From the NCBI GenBank assembly GCA_016188575.1, contig JACPHN010000047.1:1-54629 (forward strand): a DNA stretch of 54,629 nucleotides, written 5' to 3'. A program made the position numbers and the translations under genes. Below are positions 10,446-54,629 of the stretch, in pieces (the first letter of the stretch is position 1; every line of letters starts with the position of its first letter). Source of the stretch: Candidatus Schekmanbacteria bacterium (lineage in GTDB: Bacteria; CSSED10-310; JACPHN01). Below the pieces are notes generated by a model that was not told where the DNA came from, ran no database searches, and worked only from the letters and a program-made list of their open reading frames with translations.

Positions 10446-10550
10446 CCCTTCGTCAGCCGGTCCGAAACCCCGCCCTTCAGGGCGGAATCGCCGCGGAACC
10501 CCGGCCTGAAGGCCGGGGTTTCAGCGGTGGTTTGGGCGGGGTCCAAACCC
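10443..10550. repeat. 108-bp palindrome-rich repeat, copy 1
   Basis: Nearly identical to 52871-52978 in the cas1-cas2 gap, differing at only a few positions. It carries hairpins CCGCCCTTCAGGGCGG and CCCCGGCCTGAAGGCCGGGG. It begins at the point where the tnpB relic loses similarity to the intact copy, so it marks a recombination or insertion junction. Confidence 0.85.
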
Positions 10551-42153: not shown

Positions 42154-42318
42154 TCGGAAGGGGAGGTCACCAAACCAGAGCTCGTTCCGGTATCAGCGCG
42201 CGATAGATCTCGCGCCTACGCTCTTCGCGAGGCGGTAGCGGCGAGATTCATCGCGCCGAAATACGGGGGTGCGGGTGCGAAAATGTTCATCACGCGTTTC
42301 GGGCCGGGGTGGCAGCGG

Positions 42319-42549
42319 CGGTTCCCGAATGTGGTAGAGGTCCCCACCTCGCGTTGCGGGCTATTCCTGAATACGGTAGAGGTCCCCACCTCGCGTTGCG
42401 GGCGTTTCCCGAATACGGTAGAGGTCCGCACCTCGCGTTGCGCGCGATTCCCGAATACGGTAGAGGTCCCCACCTCGCGTTACGGGCGGTTTCCGAATAC
42501 GGTAGAGGTCCGCACCTCGCGTTGCGCGCGTTTCCCGAACACGACGAGG
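42319..42549. repeat. 42-bp tandem repeat, five and a half units
   Basis: Units start at 42319, 42361, 42403, 42445 and 42487, with a partial sixth at 42529. Each carries CCCGAATACGGTAGAGGT, and the inverted GAGGT-CC(C/G)C-ACCTC forms a small hairpin. Units differ at a few positions and alternate CCCC and CCGC loops. The period is 14 codons, so frames stay open on both strands, but there is no start signal or known product. The rest of 42154-42727 shows no gene. Confidence 0.92.
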
Positions 42550-43432: not shown

Positions 43433-43888
43433 CTATTGGTTGCGTACCGTGATCACCTCGGCCTTGCGCAGGATCCGGTTTCGCGCCTGATCGACATAGC
43501 CAGGGCGCACCACGTTGAGGATCGTCGTATTCGGCAGCTCGGCCGCGGGTCGCGTCTCGACGACGGTGCACGCTTCCAACGTGGCCTTGCCTGCGGTGAC
43601 GGACAGCTCGACGATGTGTTGCTCCTCGAGCGTCCTGAGCAGCTTGCGCCGGATGGCCTGCACGTTGCCGGCGAGCCGTTTCCCCGAGCGGCCCAGCTCG
43701 TCACCGCGGCGCTCGATGCTCGCGGCAAGACTGGAAAGGGCGTCGACGGCCTCGAAGATCCCGTTGTAGAGCGCGAGCCGGGCGGCCTGGCTCTCGTCCT
43801 CGCGCCGCCTCGATTCCTGTTCGAGCTCGACGATCCGCCGCTGGAACGTCGCCAGCCGGTCGCGGAGATACTGCTTGATGTCGTTCAC
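43433..43888 (-). CDS. GrpE-like nucleotide-exchange factor of the Hsp70 operon
   Basis: 151 aa. The N-terminal 60 residues are helical/coiled coil (FQRRIVELEQESRRREDES). The C-terminal part follows the GrpE head: QAIRRKLLRTLEEQHIVEL, then a strand-rich stretch ending NVVRPGYVDQARNRILRKAE, corresponding to the GrpE GY..rvlRpA.V ending. The GTG start overlaps the stop of the J-like gene (GTGA). It would promote ADP release from the partner Hsp70 encoded three genes upstream. It is shorter and more divergent than housekeeping GrpE. Confidence 0.78.
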   Translation of the reverse strand: MNDIKQYLRDRLATFQRRIVELEQESRRREDESQAARLALYNGIFEAVDALSSLAASIERRGDELGRSGKRLAGNVQAIRRKLLRTLEEQHIVELSVTAGKATLEACTVVETRPAAELPNTTILNVVRPGYVDQARNRILRKAEVITVRNQ

Positions 43889-47080: not shown

Positions 47081-49435
47081 CTACCGTTCCCTGATGTCCT
47101 TGTGGATCGTCCGGGTGGCGGTGTAATCGGTGTCCAGTGCGTCATCGGCCTCGTGGAGCGCCTTCTTGAGCAGCTCGGTGAGCTCGTTCTCGTTCACGCC
47201 TGGACGCAACAGCATGTCCATGATTTCCGCAAGGGAGCGGTCAAGGCGATCGGAGCGGGCGGGATCGCTATCCGCATAGACCTCCACCGCCCTCTGAATC
47301 TGCAGAATGTAGTTGGCGACGCCAAAGTGGTCGTCTATGGCGTCGTGTAGGGCGTGGATAGCGGCCGCCGTGATGTCGTAGTCGCCTTCGTCCTCCGCCG
47401 TGCGCAGCTCCGCGATGCGCTGCCGCACGACGCGGTGCCCTTCCGGCGCGATGAGATCGCCGAACTCGTCAAGGCCGTGCTCCGCGTAGAAAATGGAGGG
47501 GCCGCACGTTTGGTCCGCCGCGGCGAGCCGGCTGGCAGTTTCGAGGTAGCGCGCGGTCTTCTGAAAAAGCTGCTCGTCGAGCTGCCCGGTATTCGGATCG
47601 AGAAGCTCATGGATGGCGTTGACGGCGGAGACCACGTGGCGCTCGATGTCGGTCATGACGTACTGCGAGTATCGCTCCTTGTTGGCCCGGTCGATGAGCG
47701 CTTCGAGCTCGAGCAGGAGCTTCTCGTCGCCGCTGCCGCGCGACAGCGTCTTGGTGATCGCGATTTCGGGATGCTCGCGCAGGGCGGCGGAAACTTCCAG
47801 GATGTTGTCGCTGTCGACGCGCAGCGCGATCTCCACGTGCCGCGGCTGCTCGGCGGCCGCCAGGTCCTCATCGGCGGTGTCGTCCGCGGCGTCCTCGTCC
47901 GCGCCGGCGGAAAACGCCAACCACAGGTCGCCCACCGGCTCTTCCACGTCATTGACCACGTTTACGAACTTCAGATGGGCGAGCTGTTGCTCGGCGTGGA
48001 CGGTTTCGAAGACGGCGCTGGTCTCGCAGGGAAGGGGCGACCCTTTTTCGATGAGCAGCTTGCGCTCGCCGTTTTGCAGGTAGATGTAGTAGTCGTGCGC
48101 GGCCGAGTGAACGATGTCGAAGACGCCCTTTTCGATGACGTGGCGCTCGAGGTCGAAATCGCAGCGCTGGCAGCGGGTTTCGGACTGCTTGACGGCGGTG
48201 CCGCAGCCGGGGCATTCGTAGGTATCGGCAAGCCGATGGCTGAGGATGGCGGCGCCTTCGGCGACGGCGAGCATGGGCCGCGGATGCACCATGACCTTTT
48301 CCGCGCCGAATTCGCCCTGCACGGCAGCGACGATGCTGGGCACGAGCGACGAACCGCCGACCATGAGCACCTGGTCGATGAGATCCGGCGTCAGGCACAA
48401 GCTTTGCAGGAGATCCCGAGTGAGCTTGACGGTGCGCTCGGCGATCGGCGCCACGAGCCGGTCGAGCTCGGCTCTGGAGAATTCGACCTCGACGTCGAGC
48501 TCCTCGCCGTCGCGGTCCGTCAAGGCGCCGAGGATGTCGACGACGACCCGGTCGCGGCTGCTGAGCGCGATCTTGGCCTCCTCGGCCTTCTCCGCCAACT
48601 GCCCGAGAAAGCGGTAGCGGCGCGCCACCGGCTGCTCGGCGATGAGCGCGCGGAGGTCGTCGAGCTCGTGCGCCGCCGCGGTTTCGCGCAGCACGTGCTC
48701 GGCAACGAGGCGGTCGATGTCGGCGCCGCCCAACCACATGTCGCCTCCCTTGCCCTGCTCGAGGACTTGCCCGCCGCTGATCATCAGCACCGACAGGTCG
48801 AACGTACCGCCACCCAGGTCGAATACCATCACCGTCCGGGAGTCCTCGGGCGCGAGCTCATCGACGCCGAAGCAGATCGCCGCCGCCGTCGGCTCGGGCA
48901 GGAGCCGCTGCACTTTCAGCCCCGCCAGGGCCGCGGCCAGGCGCGTGGCGTGCTTCTGCTTGTCGTTGAAGTAGGCCGGGACCGTGATCACGCACAGCTC
49001 GATCCTGTCGCCGAGCTGCGCCTCGGCGTCCGCGCGGATTTTGTCCAGAATCTTCGCGGAGATCTCCTCGGGCGTGAGCTGGTCACCGTGCAGGTTGATC
49101 GCCAGCGAATGGACGCTGCCGCGCTCGTGGCGCTCGATCCGGTAGGGCACGCGCGCCTCGGCGATGATCTGCTGCACCTCGGGGCTGTCGAAGGGCCTGC
49201 CGATGAGGCGTTTGACCGCGACAACCGTGTTCTCCGGGTCCTGTTTGCGCCACGCGAGCGCGTCGCGACCGACGACGAGCCGCGGTTTCGCGGGCGGCTC
49301 GCCGGCTTTTTGGCTGCACACGCAGGACGGCGTCAGCAGCTCGCCCTCGGCGTTTTTGAGGATTTCGGTACCCAGGATCTTGATGGCGGCTACCGAGTTT
49401 GTCGTTCCGAGGTCGATGCCGATCGACTTGGCCAT
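47081..49435 (-). CDS. Hsp70-family chaperone with internal zinc ribbon
   Basis: 784 aa. The ATPase domain (1-405) carries phosphate-1 GIDLGTTNSV (6-15), phosphate-2 VFDLGGGTFDLSV (204-216) and the adenosine motif VLMVGGSSLVPSI (356-368), so it should bind ATP. Where DnaK has a short hydrophobic linker, there is a four-Cys zinc ribbon (C408, C411, C422, C425). A divergent beta substrate-binding domain (about 430-560) and a long helical C-terminus (about 560-784) follow; a DnaK-like lid tail is absent. It heads a five-gene operon with co-chaperone-like genes and is a second, specialised Hsp70, not housekeeping DnaK. Confidence 0.92.
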   Translation of the reverse strand: MAKSIGIDLGTTNSVAAIKILGTEILKNAEGELLTPSCVCSQKAGEPPAKPRLVVGRDALAWRKQDPENTVVAVKRLIGRPFDSPEVQQIIAEARVPYRIERHERGSVHSLAINLHGDQLTPEEISAKILDKIRADAEAQLGDRIELCVITVPAYFNDKQKHATRLAAALAGLKVQRLLPEPTAAAICFGVDELAPEDSRTVMVFDLGGGTFDLSVLMISGGQVLEQGKGGDMWLGGADIDRLVAEHVLRETAAAHELDDLRALIAEQPVARRYRFLGQLAEKAEEAKIALSSRDRVVVDILGALTDRDGEELDVEVEFSRAELDRLVAPIAERTVKLTRDLLQSLCLTPDLIDQVLMVGGSSLVPSIVAAVQGEFGAEKVMVHPRPMLAVAEGAAILSHRLADTYECPGCGTAVKQSETRCQRCDFDLERHVIEKGVFDIVHSAAHDYYIYLQNGERKLLIEKGSPLPCETSAVFETVHAEQQLAHLKFVNVVNDVEEPVGDLWLAFSAGADEDAADDTADEDLAAAEQPRHVEIALRVDSDNILEVSAALREHPEIAITKTLSRGSGDEKLLLELEALIDRANKERYSQYVMTDIERHVVSAVNAIHELLDPNTGQLDEQLFQKTARYLETASRLAAADQTCGPSIFYAEHGLDEFGDLIAPEGHRVVRQRIAELRTAEDEGDYDITAAAIHALHDAIDDHFGVANYILQIQRAVEVYADSDPARSDRLDRSLAEIMDMLLRPGVNENELTELLKKALHEADDALDTDYTATRTIHKDIRER

Positions 49436-49680: not shown

Positions 49681-51777
49681 ATGAGCGGTGAAGACGAAGG
49701 GGGCGAATGGCTGGAGCAAGTGCGGCGCGCCCGGGACGCGTGGGAAGCGGGCGACGCGGCGGCGGCGCGGGAGCTGGTGGCGCGCGAGGACATGCTGGAG
49801 CGGCGGGATCCGGCGCTGCACATGGCGCTCGGCGCGCTGGCCGAGGAGATCGGCGAGCTTGGGCGCGCGGTGCGCGAATACAACCTGGTGGTTCGGGACG
49901 ATCCGGACAGTGTGGAGGCGTGGCGGCGGCTCGGGCAGTTGCGCGCCGACCACGGGCAGCTCGATCGCGCCGTGCGCTGCTACGAGCGTCTGCTGGCGCT
50001 GGCGCCGGAGGATGCCGAGGCCACCATGCACCTGGCGCGGTGGCAGCGGGATCGCGGCCATCCGGACGAGGCGCAGGACGTGCTCGCCGCGGCACACGGG
50101 CGCACCGCCGACCAGCGCCTCGGCGAGGCGCTGAGCCGCGCCCGCCGCGAGGCGCGAAACCCGGCCGCCGAGACCGACCCTCCGGCCGCCGGCGCACCCG
50201 CTGGGGCGATGCCCACCGAAGGAGACGCCATCAACTTCTGCACGCTGTTCGGCGGGCGCGAGGGCGTCTACGCCCGCCAGTGGGCGGCGCCGGGCGGGGC
50301 GACGGGGTACACGCCGGTGAGCGAGCCGTTCACGCCGGCGGTGGCGATGCAACACCTCTCGGGAAACATCACCGTCGGGATCTACCCGGTGCGCCTCGAC
50401 CGCACGGTGAACTTTCTCGCCTTCGACCTGGACGCGGCGAAATACGCGCGCACCGGCGCCGGGGAGAGCGGTCGCGCGCGGGCTCGGCTCGACGCGCTGA
50501 CGCACGCGGCGGCGGTGGCCATCGCCGAGCGCGCGGCGGCCTTCGATCTGCCCAGTGTCCTCGAGGATTCCGGCCAGAAGGGCCGCCACGTCTGGATGCT
50601 GTTCGCTTCCCCGATCCCGGCGCTTGCGGCGCGCCGCCTCGGACGCCTCATCCTCGACGGCCTCACCGGCCTGCCGGCGGAAATCACCGTCGAGCTGTTC
50701 CCCAAGCAGTCGACGGTCCCACACGGCGGGCTCGGCAATCTCATCAAGCTGCCACTGTCGATCCATCGCCGCAGCGGCCGGCCGTCGCGGTTCTTGCGCC
50801 AGGACGGCACCGTGGTCCCGGACCCGTGCGCGCTGCTCGCCGCCGCTCCCACCGTGCGCCGCGACGACGTCTTGCGCATCCTCGAGCGATACGCGCCGGG
50901 TTCGGGCGACCCGCGAGCGCAGCCGGGGCACAGCGGCGGCGGCAAGATTCACCCCCTTCCGGGCGTATCCCTTTCCGGCGCAGCCGATGGCGAGCACGAC
51001 GTCACGGCCGAGGACGTCGCGACCTTGCCTGCCGGCCTCGCCGAACGCGCCCCCTACGACCTCGACCAGGACCAGGAGGCGCTCTGGCTCCGCCAGCGCT
51101 GCCCGGTGCTCAACGAGATCATTCGCCGCGCCGAAACCGCCTCCTCGCTGACTGCCGACGAGCGCGTCGTGCTCACCTATACCCTCGGCCACGCCACGCG
51201 CGGCGCCGAAATGGTCAACGCCGTGCTCGCCCGCACGCTCTCCGTCCAGGAAAGCGACTTCCTCAAATCCCGGCTACGCGGCAACCCGATGAGCTGCCCG
51301 AAGATCCGCTCGCGCGTGAGCGCCATCAGCGGCGCCGTCGACTGCAACTGCCGCTTCGACCTCTCCAACGCGACCTACCCGACGCCGCTGTTGCACCTCT
51401 CCGAGCTGCGCGCCGAGCGCCAGGCGGGCGGCGATGCCGTGCGCCTGACGCGGTTCCAGCTCGAAAACCTCGTCGGCGAGCTCATCAAGATCAAGAGCGA
51501 GCAACGTCGCATGCAGCGGTTGCAGCAGAGCCTCGAGGAGCGCCTGCGCGCGTTCATGGAAGAACAGGCGATCACCGAGCTCGTCACGCGGCACGGCCTG
51601 CTGCGGCGAGACGAGACCGGCACCTTCACGGTAACCTTGCCCGGAGGACAGGAGCGACAAACGGATGGCGGTGCTGTACGTGACGGAGCAGGGCGCGCGG
51701 GTCAACCGGAAGTCCGAGCGGCTGCTGATCTCGAAGGCGGGCGTGCTGCTGCGCCAGGAACCGCTGGCCAAGGTTGA
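49681..51777 (+). CDS. TPR-fused primase-polymerase, CRISPR-associated (CAPP-like)
   Basis: 698 aa. Residues about 15-140 are TPR-like. Residues about 180-400 form an archaeo-eukaryotic-type primase domain: catalytic Asp pair D249/D251 (FLAFDLDAAK), the SGQKGRH motif (297-303) and a third acidic/basic segment (VELFPKQ, GNLIKLPLSIHRRSG). A C-terminal four-Cys set (C484, C539, C555, C557) fits a primase C-terminal metal or Fe-S site. GGAG precedes the ATG. It overlaps cas1 by 113 bp; the last 37 or so residues are encoded out of frame with cas1. CRISPR-associated primase-polymerases near cas1/cas2 are known and are proposed to fill or extend spacer DNA during adaptation. Confidence 0.85.
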   Translation: MSGEDEGGEWLEQVRRARDAWEAGDAAAARELVAREDMLERRDPALHMALGALAEEIGELGRAVREYNLVVRDDPDSVEAWRRLGQLRADHGQLDRAVRCYERLLALAPEDAEATMHLARWQRDRGHPDEAQDVLAAAHGRTADQRLGEALSRARREARNPAAETDPPAAGAPAGAMPTEGDAINFCTLFGGREGVYARQWAAPGGATGYTPVSEPFTPAVAMQHLSGNITVGIYPVRLDRTVNFLAFDLDAAKYARTGAGESGRARARLDALTHAAAVAIAERAAAFDLPSVLEDSGQKGRHVWMLFASPIPALAARRLGRLILDGLTGLPAEITVELFPKQSTVPHGGLGNLIKLPLSIHRRSGRPSRFLRQDGTVVPDPCALLAAAPTVRRDDVLRILERYAPGSGDPRAQPGHSGGGKIHPLPGVSLSGAADGEHDVTAEDVATLPAGLAERAPYDLDQDQEALWLRQRCPVLNEIIRRAETASSLTADERVVLTYTLGHATRGAEMVNAVLARTLSVQESDFLKSRLRGNPMSCPKIRSRVSAISGAVDCNCRFDLSNATYPTPLLHLSELRAERQAGGDAVRLTRFQLENLVGELIKIKSEQRRMQRLQQSLEERLRAFMEEQAITELVTRHGLLRRDETGTFTVTLPGGQERQTDGGAVRDGAGRAGQPEVRAAADLEGGRAAAPGTAGQG

Positions 51778-52831
51778 GCAGCTCGTGCTGCTCGGCAGCG
51801 TGCAAATCACCAACGCCGCGCTCCGCGTCTGTTTGCGGCGCGGCATCGACGTGGCGCTGCTGACCATGGGGGGGAAGTTCCTGGGTTCGCTGACCTCGGG
51901 CGCGAGCCCGCACGTGACGCTGCGGCGGGACCAGTTCCGGCTGCTCGACGACGAGGCCCGCGCGCTCGCCCTGGCGCGCCGTTTCGTGGCCGGCAAGATC
52001 GCCAACCAGCGCGCGCTGCTCGGGCGCTACCAGCGCTCGCGGCAGAGCGAATCGCTGGCGCGGGCGCTGGTTTTCCTGCGGCTCACGGGCGAACGGCTCG
52101 CCGGCTGCCGCACCGTGGACGAGGTGCGCGGCTTTGAAGGACGCGCGTCGGCCGCCTACTTCGAGGTCTTCGGCGAGCTCATCGACGCCCCGGACATGGC
52201 GTTTCACACGCGGCAGCGGCGGCCGCCGCCCGACCCGGTCAACGTGCTGCTGTCCTTCGGATACACGATGTTGACCAACGCGATGCACGGGGTTGTCGCG
52301 CTGGCGGGTCTCGACCCGCACTTCGGAGCGCTGCACGCGCTCGAGCGCGGCCGCGCCTCCCTGGTGCTCGACCTCATCGAGGAGCTCCGCCCCGTCATCG
52401 TCGACACGACCGTGCTGCGCGCGATCAACACGCGCATGATTACTCGCCGCGACTTCGAGGACGCCCTGGAGTCGGACGAGGACGAGGAAGAAGACGAGCT
52501 TCCCGAGCTGCTCGCCGAGGTCGTGCGCGAGCCGGACGCCGAGGCGGACGGCGTGGCGGATGGCGGCGGTGGTAGTGGCGGCGAGCCCGCCGGCACCGGC
52601 GGCGACGCGCGGGGCACCGGGCCGCGACCGCAGCGGCGGCAAGTGATCTTCACGCCCGCCGGCGTCCGCAAGTGGGTGTCAGCGGTGGAGCAACGCATGC
52701 TCGTGCGCGCGGTCTATTCGCCGCGCGACGAGTCGCTGACGTATCGACAGATCATGCGGGAACAGGTCTACCGGCTCGCCCGCCACGTGCGCGGCGAGGA
52801 CGAATACGAACCGTACGAGTGGCGCTGGTGA
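51665..52831 (+). CDS. cas1: CRISPR-associated integrase Cas1
   Basis: 388 aa. The metal-binding triad is E158 (GFEGRASAAYF), H224 (FGALHALERGRASL) and E239 (LDLIEELRP), with the LLSFGYTMLTNAMHG helix. It forms the integrase complex with Cas2 and inserts spacers next to the leader. An acidic then Gly-rich segment (about 270-326, with DEDEEEDELPELL and GGGGSGGEP) interrupts the C-terminal helical domain and makes it longer than typical Cas1 (about 300-340). The ATG has GGAG about ten bases upstream inside the primase gene. Confidence 0.96.
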   Translation: MAVLYVTEQGARVNRKSERLLISKAGVLLRQEPLAKVEQLVLLGSVQITNAALRVCLRRGIDVALLTMGGKFLGSLTSGASPHVTLRRDQFRLLDDEARALALARRFVAGKIANQRALLGRYQRSRQSESLARALVFLRLTGERLAGCRTVDEVRGFEGRASAAYFEVFGELIDAPDMAFHTRQRRPPPDPVNVLLSFGYTMLTNAMHGVVALAGLDPHFGALHALERGRASLVLDLIEELRPVIVDTTVLRAINTRMITRRDFEDALESDEDEEEDELPELLAEVVREPDAEADGVADGGGGSGGEPAGTGGDARGTGPRPQRRQVIFTPAGVRKWVSAVEQRMLVRAVYSPRDESLTYRQIMREQVYRLARHVRGEDEYEPYEWRW

Positions 52832-52870
52832 ACCCAAATCGCCCCCCGATCGACGCGAGGCCGGCAAGCT

Positions 52871-52978
52871 CATCCATTCGTCACCCGGTCCGAAACCCCG
52901 CCCTTCAGGGCGGATTCGCCGCGGAACCCCGGCCTGAAGGCCGGGGTTTCAGCGGTGGTTTGGGCGGGGTCCAAACCC
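52871..52978. repeat. 108-bp palindrome-rich repeat, copy 2, in the cas1-cas2 gap
   Basis: Same orientation and nearly the same sequence as 10443-10550. Hairpins CCCCGGCCTGAAGGCCGGGG and CCGCCCTTCAGGGCGG are preserved, and a third, GCCGGCCTGAAGGCCGGC, follows at about 52992-53009. The 303-bp gap holds no other recognisable feature. Confidence 0.85.
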
Positions 52979-53134
52979 CGCCCAAACATGTCGCCGGCCT
53001 GAAGGCCGGCATCCATATTGGTCGATACAGGCGCGATCCCGGCTTTCCCCGGGAGGCATCGAGAGCGGGTGCGACCTCGCCTGGCCCCAGGTTTGCGGGC
53101 GATTTGCGGTGAAGTCGCCGCGAGGAGAGTAGTC

Positions 53135-53410
53135 GTGTATATCGTGGTGAGCTATGACGTGGTTTCGGACAGGCGGCGCGCGGAAGTCGCGAAAGTGCTG
53201 GAAGATACCGGCCGGCGAGTGCAGAAGAGCGTGTTCGAGTGCCGGATCGACGAGCGCGCGCTGCTGAGGCTGCGCAAGCGACTGGCGGAGGCGATCGATC
53301 AGAGCGAGGACAGCGTGCGCTTCTACCGCCTCTGCCAGCGGTGCGTGACGTCGCTCGAGGTGCTCGGCCAGGGAACGCTGACTGCGGATGAGGACGTGAT
53401 CGTGGTGTAG
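53135..53410 (+). CDS. cas2: CRISPR-associated Cas2
   Basis: 91 aa, ferredoxin-like: YIVVSYDVVSDRRRAEVAKV with the conserved Asp at the end of strand 1, and VQKSVFECRIDE on strand 2. GAGGAGAG seven bases upstream marks the GTG at 53135 as the start; the longer open frame before it is not coding. It bridges Cas1 dimers during spacer integration. It is separated from cas1 by the palindromic repeat instead of overlapping it. Confidence 0.95.
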   Translation: MYIVVSYDVVSDRRRAEVAKVLEDTGRRVQKSVFECRIDERALLRLRKRLAEAIDQSEDSVRFYRLCQRCVTSLEVLGQGTLTADEDVIVV

Positions 53411-53564
53411 CGGGCGAACGGCGGCGGCTCACGGGCTCCCGAAGAGCGTGATCAGGCCACAATCTCCGGCGTCGGCCGAAGGTGCTGTACACCATGGCGA
53501 GCGCAATGCGCGCGGCGTTCGGCCAACAGCCGGAATCCTGGCGCGATTGCCAGCTCATGAGACC

Positions 53565-53689
53565 TTGCCGTACGCACCGGCGTGACAATGCCGCCCTCCG
53601 ACCCGCCCCCCGCTTGCGGGGGCGGGAGGTGGGGGTATTCGCGATGCGCTTTCAGCGCAGCTTGCGGTCGAAGTGGCGGTGGATTCAGG
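53565..53689. repeat. Dispersed repeat family (about 140 bp type), copy f
   Basis: GGCGTGACAATGCC is followed by a CCCGCCCCCCGCTTGCGGGG palindrome with flanking CGGGAGGTGGGGGTATTC, then GCGATGCGCTTTC and the GGCGGTGGATTCAGG end, aligning with 17170-17309. It lies between cas2 and the CRISPR leader. The rest of 53411-53955 shows no gene. Confidence 0.8.
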
Positions 53690-53955
53690 TCGTCGTCTGA
53701 GCTTGCGAGGAATCGCGCGCGGACGACGCTCCGCGTCGCGCGCTCGGCCGCGGCGCGCGGAAGGCGGGGTGTGCGTGCGATCAGGGACTTGGAGCGGCTA
53801 CCTCGCACCGGTCCGTTCGTTCCCGGGCGGATGGCGAGACGGTGCGTTTGCTGCCTCTCCGCGCGCGGCGGGGCGGAGCGCGGCTGTGACCGACAACGCA
53901 CACCGTGGAGCTCATTGTCCGCAATCGGGAGCAACCGGCGTTTTGCGGCATGGCC

Positions 53956-53984
53956 TTGCGGCAATCGGGGCAATCGCGTATATT
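53956..53984 (+). promoter_or_regulatory. Candidate CRISPR leader promoter
   Basis: TTGCGG (53956-53961), a 17-bp spacer and TATATT (53979-53984). A transcript from about 53991 would run about 150 nt through the A-rich leader into the first repeat at 54144. The direction agrees with the repeat ending in ATTGAGAC. Confidence 0.45.
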
Positions 53985-54143
53985 GAAGACGAAAAAAGCA
54001 CCGTTGACGCGGAAAAACGCGAAGCTGGAGCAGTTCCTTGGTAACTGAATATGTCGGTTCCGGGGATGGTGGGGGATCCCCCCCTATGGGTGCGTTGAAA
54101 AAGGCCCGGCATTCGGCCTGGGGAGATGATTTTCGGGAGCACA

Positions 54144-54629
54144 GTCTGCAGACCGGCCCCGTTTTCTAGGGGATTGAGACTTCCAGATCTTCTTGCGAAT
54201 TTCTTCGACTAACCCTTCAGTCTGCAGACCGGCCCCGTTTTCTAGGGGATTGAGACATGTCCCTGCAGCGCTTCCTTGCTGCAGAGGAGCAGTCTGCAGA
54301 CCGGCCCCGTTTTCTAGGGGATTGAGACGGAGGCCGCTGCCAGGTCCCCTTTGATGGTAGCCTTCGTCTGCAGACCGGCCCCGTTTTCTAGGGGATTGAG
54401 ACTTTCATACCCGGATATTTCGCATGCGAAATATCTCAAGGTCTGCAGACCGGCCCCGTTTTCTAGGGGATTGAGACCGCTTCCGCGGCGTCAATCTCGA
54501 TCTGTGCGTACCTGGTCTGCAGACCGGCCCCGTTTTCTAGGGGATTGAGACTTTCCGACGCTGCAGAAATTTCCGCGGCGTCAGCTTTTGGTCTGCAGAC
54601 CGGCCCCGTTTTCTAGGGGATTGAGACCT
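54144..54629 (+). CRISPR. CRISPR array, seven repeats visible, cut by the window end
   Basis: 37-bp identical repeats beginning GTCTGCAGACCGGCCCC and ending GGGGATTGAGAC lie at 54144, 54220, 54292, 54366, 54441, 54515 and 54591. Six complete spacers have lengths 39, 35, 37, 38, 37 and 39 bp. The repeat starts with the palindrome GTCTGCAGAC and has a CCCC/GGGG stem around GTTTTCTA. The leader-side cas1/cas2/primase genes and the repeat ending fit a type III-like or mixed system, but no effector gene is in the window, so the type is not fixed. Confidence 0.98.

What the first reader, a model, noticed from the sequence alone, without database searches (positions are those of the whole stretch)
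49681..54629. CRISPR adaptation module built on a TPR-fused primase-polymerase
A primase-polymerase with an added N-terminal TPR domain, cas1 and cas2 precede a CRISPR array, with no interference gene visible. The sequence shows intact DxD, SxH-type and four-Cys sites. CRISPR-associated primase-polymerases are described, but the TPR fusion suggests that an extra protein partner is recruited during spacer capture. The divergent Hsp70 operon with its own TPR and co-chaperone proteins is an obvious candidate neighbour.
Basis: partly seen in the sequence, partly recalled or inferred. Interest (0 to 1): 0.85.

Follow-up and report, generated by a model that had tools for sequence, protein, structure and literature searches.

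The report
CRISPR spacer-capture module with TPR primase-polymerase
This is an intact but already described kind of CRISPR "memory-writing" gene set, in which a DNA-copying enzyme with a built-in TPR domain works with Cas1 and Cas2 to add spacers to the neighbouring array; the heat-shock operon next door shows no sign of belonging to it.

Summary
Window 49681-54629 encodes a 698-aa TPR + AEP + four-Cys protein, cas1, cas2 and a seven-repeat CRISPR array that runs off the contig end. The protein passes NCBIfam's "CRISPR-associated primase-polymerase type A1" cut-off. Its predicted AEP domain matches the solved Marinitoga CAPP Prim-Pol domain (Z 31.7). All catalytic and Cys positions are intact.

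The claimed novelty is not. Zabrady et al. 2021 (PMC8211822) defined CAPP-TPR as the first type of CAPP_A, with cas1/cas2, and tested its TPR domain: it takes part in CAPP self-association. I found 60 relatives in many phyla: 50 have cas1 and cas2 alongside, and at least 32 of 39 aligned CAPPs carry a recognised TPR.

The Hsp70 link fails the test that could be run: no Hsp70-operon homologue lies near any of the 60 loci, 28 of which show at least 5 kb upstream.

Interference genes exist elsewhere in the genome (five Cas10-type loci, including type III-B). A second array with the identical repeat and an 80%-identical leader lies on contig C39.

One side observation may be new: Cas1 proteins paired with the large TPR-CAPP clade carry a variable acidic linker that is nearly absent from Cas1s paired with RT-CAPPs.

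The parts
49681..51777 (+). CAPP type A1 (CAPP-TPR): N-terminal TPR (about residues 6-159), AEP/Prim-Pol core (about 178-407), disordered linker (409-455), four-Cys C-terminal domain (about 465-581), long helix with weak Mu-Gam/Gp157-TOTE similarity (595-645)
   Evidence: NF040561 275.5 bits (cut-off 200), PF22548 149 bits, PADLOC PrimPol 'adaptation polymerase' 288 bits, PDB 7nqd/7nqf/7p9j matches
51665..52831 (+). cas1, 388 aa, with an acidic/Gly-rich linker at about residues 265-326; E158, H224, D236 and E239 invariant in 51 of 51 aligned Cas1s
   Evidence: PF01867 295 bits, TIGR00287 269 bits; alignment
53135..53410 (+). cas2, 91 aa, GTG start
   Evidence: PF09827 87.6 bits, TIGR01573 70.7 bits
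52893..52949 (+). dispersed REP-like palindromic repeat lying between cas1 and cas2; another copy at 10465-10521
   Evidence: 57 matches to one arm at up to 2 mismatches in the genome, 0 in the reversed control; both copies printed
53641..54143 (+). leader region, about 80% identical to the leader of a second array on contig C39
   Evidence: blastn, 778 alignment columns including the first array units
54144..54629 (+). CRISPR array: 7 identical copies of GTCTGCAGACCGGCCCCGTTTTCTAGGGGATTGAGAC, running off the contig end
47081..49435 (-). Hsp70-like gene, divergent neighbour; judged NOT part of the module
   Evidence: PF00012 residues 5-402 only; 0 of 60 related CAPP loci have it

Best explanation
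An ordinary CAPP_A type 1 (CAPP-TPR) CRISPR adaptation module, on a contig of a bacterium placed by inference in candidate phylum CSSED10-310. Inferred mechanism: CAPP primes and extends DNA, turning single-stranded fragments into double-stranded prespacers and/or filling the gaps left after integration; the Cas1-Cas2 integrase inserts the prespacer at the leader end of the neighbouring array, and probably also at the sister array on contig C39; type III effectors encoded elsewhere in the genome use the crRNAs. The TPR most likely serves CAPP self-association and CAPP-Cas assembly. Shown here: gene identity, intact sites, conserved linkage and the shared repeat. Inferred: all biochemical steps (by homology to MpCAPP), use of the C39 array, and effector pairing.
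For: NF040561 type A1 above cut-off, covering TPR and AEP. AEP model matches Marinitoga CAPP structures, Z 31.7, rmsd 1.6 A over 219 residues, 28% identity. D177/D179 of MpCAPP are required for polymerase and primase activity (PMC8211822); the matching DxD is intact and invariant in 54 of 54. 50 of 60 relatives carry cas1 and cas2 alongside; most of the rest are cut by a contig end or are weak matches. TPR Pfam match in at least 32 of 39 aligned relatives. MpCAPP binds Cas1 and self-associates partly through its TPR (PMC8211822). Nine of 60 relatives have type III effector (Cmr or related) genes nearby. Two arrays with the same repeat and related leaders occur in the genome.
Against: No enzymatic or acquisition data for this protein. 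No type III effector is adjacent, and no other array with this repeat was found next to any of the fetched Cas10 loci, so the pairing is unproven. Four spacer cores searched found no exact match in viral contigs, and the array matched no phage record.
Confidence: 0.93

Rival explanations
1. One reading: the TPR recruits an extra partner from the divergent Hsp70/TPR/GrpE operon during spacer capture.
For: The two operons are divergent neighbours 245 bp apart. The TPR model resembles, among many TPRs, the HOP TPR1 domain solved with an Hsc70 peptide (Z 14.7), but designed and unrelated TPRs score the same.
Against: No Hsp70, GrpE or operon-TPR hit in 60 related loci, 28 of them with at least 5 kb upstream; the same Hsp70 query does detect both DnaKs of this genome at E < 1e-50. 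The operon's TPR protein is not found in the other seven phylum genomes. Hsp70 C-terminus is HKDIRER, not EEVD. Within the TPR only G92, A97 and P109 are conserved at 85% or more, typical TPR consensus residues rather than a binding surface.
Confidence: 0.03
2. A TOTE-type conflict or mobile-element primase that merely sits beside cas1/cas2 and has no role in adaptation.
For: The best Pfam name is AEP-TOTE, and the C-terminus has weak similarity to the Mu-Gam/Gp157-TOTE domain (12 of 39 relatives match, best E 4.9e-20). PMC8211822 reports related Prim-Pols outside CRISPR loci.
Against: cas1 and cas2 accompany the family across many phyla, the gene overlaps cas1 by 113 nt, and the type A1 model fits end to end.
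Confidence: 0.02
3. Decaying orphan module that no longer acquires or uses spacers.
For: No adjacent effector; a dispersed repeat sits between cas1 and cas2.
Against: All catalytic residues intact in CAPP and Cas1; seven identical repeats with different spacers; a second array with identical repeats; type III effectors elsewhere in the genome.
Confidence: 0.04

Closest known systems
CAPP_A type 1 (CAPP-TPR), Marinitoga piezophila MpCAPP / Marinitoga sp. 1137 (Zabrady et al. 2021, PMC8211822; PDB 7nqd, 7nqe, 7nqf, 7p9j, 7qaz)
   Same: TPR-AEP-CTD architecture, DxD active site, cysteine-bearing CTD, cas1 and cas2 partners, nearby array
   Different: About 28% identical in the AEP core; longer TPR region (nine predicted helices against three TPR repeats reported); no Argonaute neighbour; Cas1 carries a long acidic linker
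CAPP-TPR modules of Myxococcota (L037, L046)
   Same: Closest relatives on the tree (99/94 support); same gene set with array; acidic Cas1 linker of similar kind
   Different: cas2 lies upstream of CAPP in L037; no Hsp70 operon
CAPP-RT (CAPP_A type 2), e.g. L088 in the same phylum
   Same: Same AEP and CTD, cas1 and cas2
   Different: N-terminal reverse transcriptase fused on; Cas1 linker only 6-7 residues in the trimmed alignment

Membership tests
CAPP_A type 1 (CAPP-TPR) | AEP/Prim-Pol catalytic core of the CAPP_A kind | tested here: met
   PF22548 149 bits; NF040561 275.5 bits against cut-off 200; structure match to CAPP, Z 31.7
CAPP_A type 1 (CAPP-TPR) | N-terminal TPR domain | tested here: met
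   TPR_14 E 3.9e-10 and TPR_2 E 6.1e-9; helical repeat model residues 6-159
CAPP_A type 1 (CAPP-TPR) | C-terminal domain with conserved cysteines | tested here: met
   C474, C539, C555, C557 present; 50-54 of 54 relatives
[quoted passage not shown]
   50 of 60 relatives
CAPP_A type 1 (CAPP-TPR) | DNA priming, polymerisation, strand displacement; binding to Cas1 | not testable with these tools
   Inferred from MpCAPP (PMC8211822)
Type III-associated CRISPR adaptation module | Type III effector genes in the same locus or genome | tested here: inconclusive
   Five Cas10-family hits and a Cmr4 on other contigs, none on this contig; no matching array found beside the fetched Cas10 loci
Hsp70-linked TPR co-chaperone system | Conserved gene linkage with Hsp70 | tested here: not met
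   0 of 60 loci
Hsp70-linked TPR co-chaperone system | EEVD-type tail on the Hsp70 partner | tested here: not met
   C-terminus ends HKDIRER

The most novel reading that the evidence does not exclude
In the large TPR-CAPP clade, Cas1 has gained a long acidic, low-conservation linker that co-evolves with the TPR-bearing primase-polymerase, for example as a docking tail for CAPP or a DNA mimic that governs prespacer hand-over. This would be an undescribed interface of adaptation complexes.
Probability: 0.1. Interest if true: 0.45.

Novelty: new member of a known kind. Interest (0 to 1): 0.2.

Why it matters
It extends a published enzyme family to a candidate phylum and offers a GC-rich homologue set for testing how primase-polymerases supply prespacers. 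It does not by itself reveal a new kind of system. The Cas1 acidic linker shared across the TPR-CAPP clade is a small, testable lead on how CAPP and Cas1 are coupled.

Tried and rejected
Hsp70 partnership: rejected on linkage and on the missing EEVD tail. Frameshift at the 113-nt CAPP/cas1 overlap: the read-through tail (residues 662-698) is predicted disordered, so it does not suggest a broken domain; left as an ordinary gene overlap. Joining C158 and C39 as two ends of one array: rejected, because both arrays read outward to their contig ends in the same sense and each has its own leader. Protospacer search: the array against phages, and four 22-nt spacer cores against viral contigs, gave nothing; two spacers were not scanned. 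A first genome-contig scan with a single sequence found no relative; the alignment-based scan did. The structure search barely tests the C-terminal domain, because TPR rows fill the list; nothing is claimed about its fold.

Full report
What is there. The window is the whole of contig C158 of a 9.2-Mb, 275-contig genome. At its right end lie, on the + strand, a 698-aa protein gene (49681-51777), cas1 (51665-52831), cas2 (53135-53410) and seven identical 37-nt repeats (54144-54627) that run into the contig end. Pfam, NCBIfam and PADLOC agree: TPR, AEP-TOTE and 'CRISPR-associated primase-polymerase type A1' (275.5 bits against a cut-off of 200) for the first gene, Cas1 and Cas2 for the next two.

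Integrity. AlphaFold2 on an alignment of 39 family members gave mean pLDDT 83.6 with confident TPR, AEP and C-terminal domains; the tail encoded in the overlap with cas1 (from about residue 662) is disordered. [quoted passage not shown] 1137 CAPP (7nqf: Z 31.7, rmsd 1.6 A, 219 residues, 28% identity). D249 and D251, H303, E338 and the four cysteines C474, C539, C555 and C557 are (nearly) invariant over 54 homologues. In MpCAPP the corresponding aspartates (D177, D179) are needed for polymerase and primase activity (PMC8211822).

Family and linkage. An alignment-based scan of GTDB genomes returned 60 loci from Myxococcota, Thermodesulfobacteriota, Planctomycetota, Acidobacteriota, Deferribacterota, Thermotogota, archaea and candidate phyla. 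cas1 and cas2 accompany the gene in 50 of 60; of the other ten, seven have CAPP close to a contig end, and three (L094-L096) are weak or distant matches. At least 32 of 39 aligned members have a Pfam TPR match. So the TPR is a standard part of this family. Zabrady et al. 2021 named it CAPP-TPR, first type of CAPP_A, and found that the TPR takes part in CAPP self-association and that CAPP binds Cas1. On the tree the window's CAPP sits with Myxococcota homologues (99/94) and not with the other CAPP carriers of its own phylum, which suggests horizontal transfer; that is an inference.

The Hsp70 neighbour. The divergent gene 47081-49435 matches Hsp70 only over its first 402 residues and heads an operon with a GrpE-like gene (43433-43888). 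tblastn with all five operon proteins found nothing at E <= 1e-3 in the 60 loci (661 kb in total; 28 loci with at least 5 kb upstream), while the same Hsp70 query readily finds this genome's two DnaKs. The operon's TPR protein is absent from the seven other genomes held for the phylum, although G001 and G007 carry CAPP modules. The Hsp70 lacks an EEVD tail, and the only residues conserved at 85% or more in the CAPP TPR are G92, A97 and P109, which I read as TPR consensus positions. Adjacency is best taken as incidental.

Interference. No effector gene is on this contig, but the genome has five Cas10-family hits (C156 twice, C85, C43, C195) and 18 RAMP hits; two Cas10s pass the III-B Cmr2 cut-off and C85 also has Cmr4. 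Three further Cas1 genes (I-C-like on C200, I-G-like Cas4-Cas1 on C228, another on C174) show that this is a CRISPR-rich genome. The repeat occurs only here and at the end of C39, where four copies follow a leader about 80% identical to this one. In relatives, type III effector genes lie near CAPP in nine loci. Use of the arrays by one of the type III effectors in trans is the simplest reading but is not shown.

Side observation. Cas1 in this module has an acidic, Gly-rich insert at about residues 265-326. In the 41 aligned Cas1s of the large TPR-CAPP clade the insert has a median of 30 residues (10-116) with 29% Asp+Glu, against 10% in the rest of the protein. In ten Cas1s outside that clade (RT-CAPP and Thermotoga-type), and in this genome's three other Cas1s, it is nearly absent. 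The contrast follows phylogeny, so independent gains were not tested.

Taxonomy. G001 and G007, called same phylum by the genome search, encode the same proteins on contigs of the same length as PWNJ01000244.1 (candidate division CSSED10-310 bacterium) and JAJRTK010000438.1, so the window's genome is inferred to belong to that phylum.

Verdict. A sound, well-read observation of a known kind of module; the two novel claims (TPR fusion, Hsp70 partner) do not hold.

Noticed in passing
window cas1, about residues 265-326 (52457-52642), and relatives: Variable acidic linker in Cas1 of the TPR-CAPP clade (median 30 aa, 29% D/E), nearly absent (6-7 aa) in RT-CAPP-type Cas1s and in the other three Cas1s of this genome.
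   Followed up: partly
52893-52949 and 10465-10521: REP-like element of two palindromic arms, dispersed in the genome (57 arm matches at up to 2 mismatches); one copy lies between cas1 and cas2, and others lie near Cas10 loci on C156 and C85.
   Followed up: partly
L013 1-1000 (contig C39): Second array with the identical repeat and an 80%-identical leader; no cas gene was recognised by eye among the ORFs of the first 14 kb.
   Followed up: partly
47081-49435: Hsp70 with a normal nucleotide-binding domain but no Pfam-recognised substrate-binding domain; a CxxC-type zinc-ribbon-like segment follows the nucleotide-binding domain, and the operon includes a GrpE-like gene.
   Followed up: no
42317-42543: Tandem array of a 42-bp unit, 5.4 copies, 88% match.
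   Followed up: no
L029 13618-14886: In G007 a TIGR02710-family CARF protein gene lies directly upstream of TPR-CAPP and cas1.
   Followed up: no
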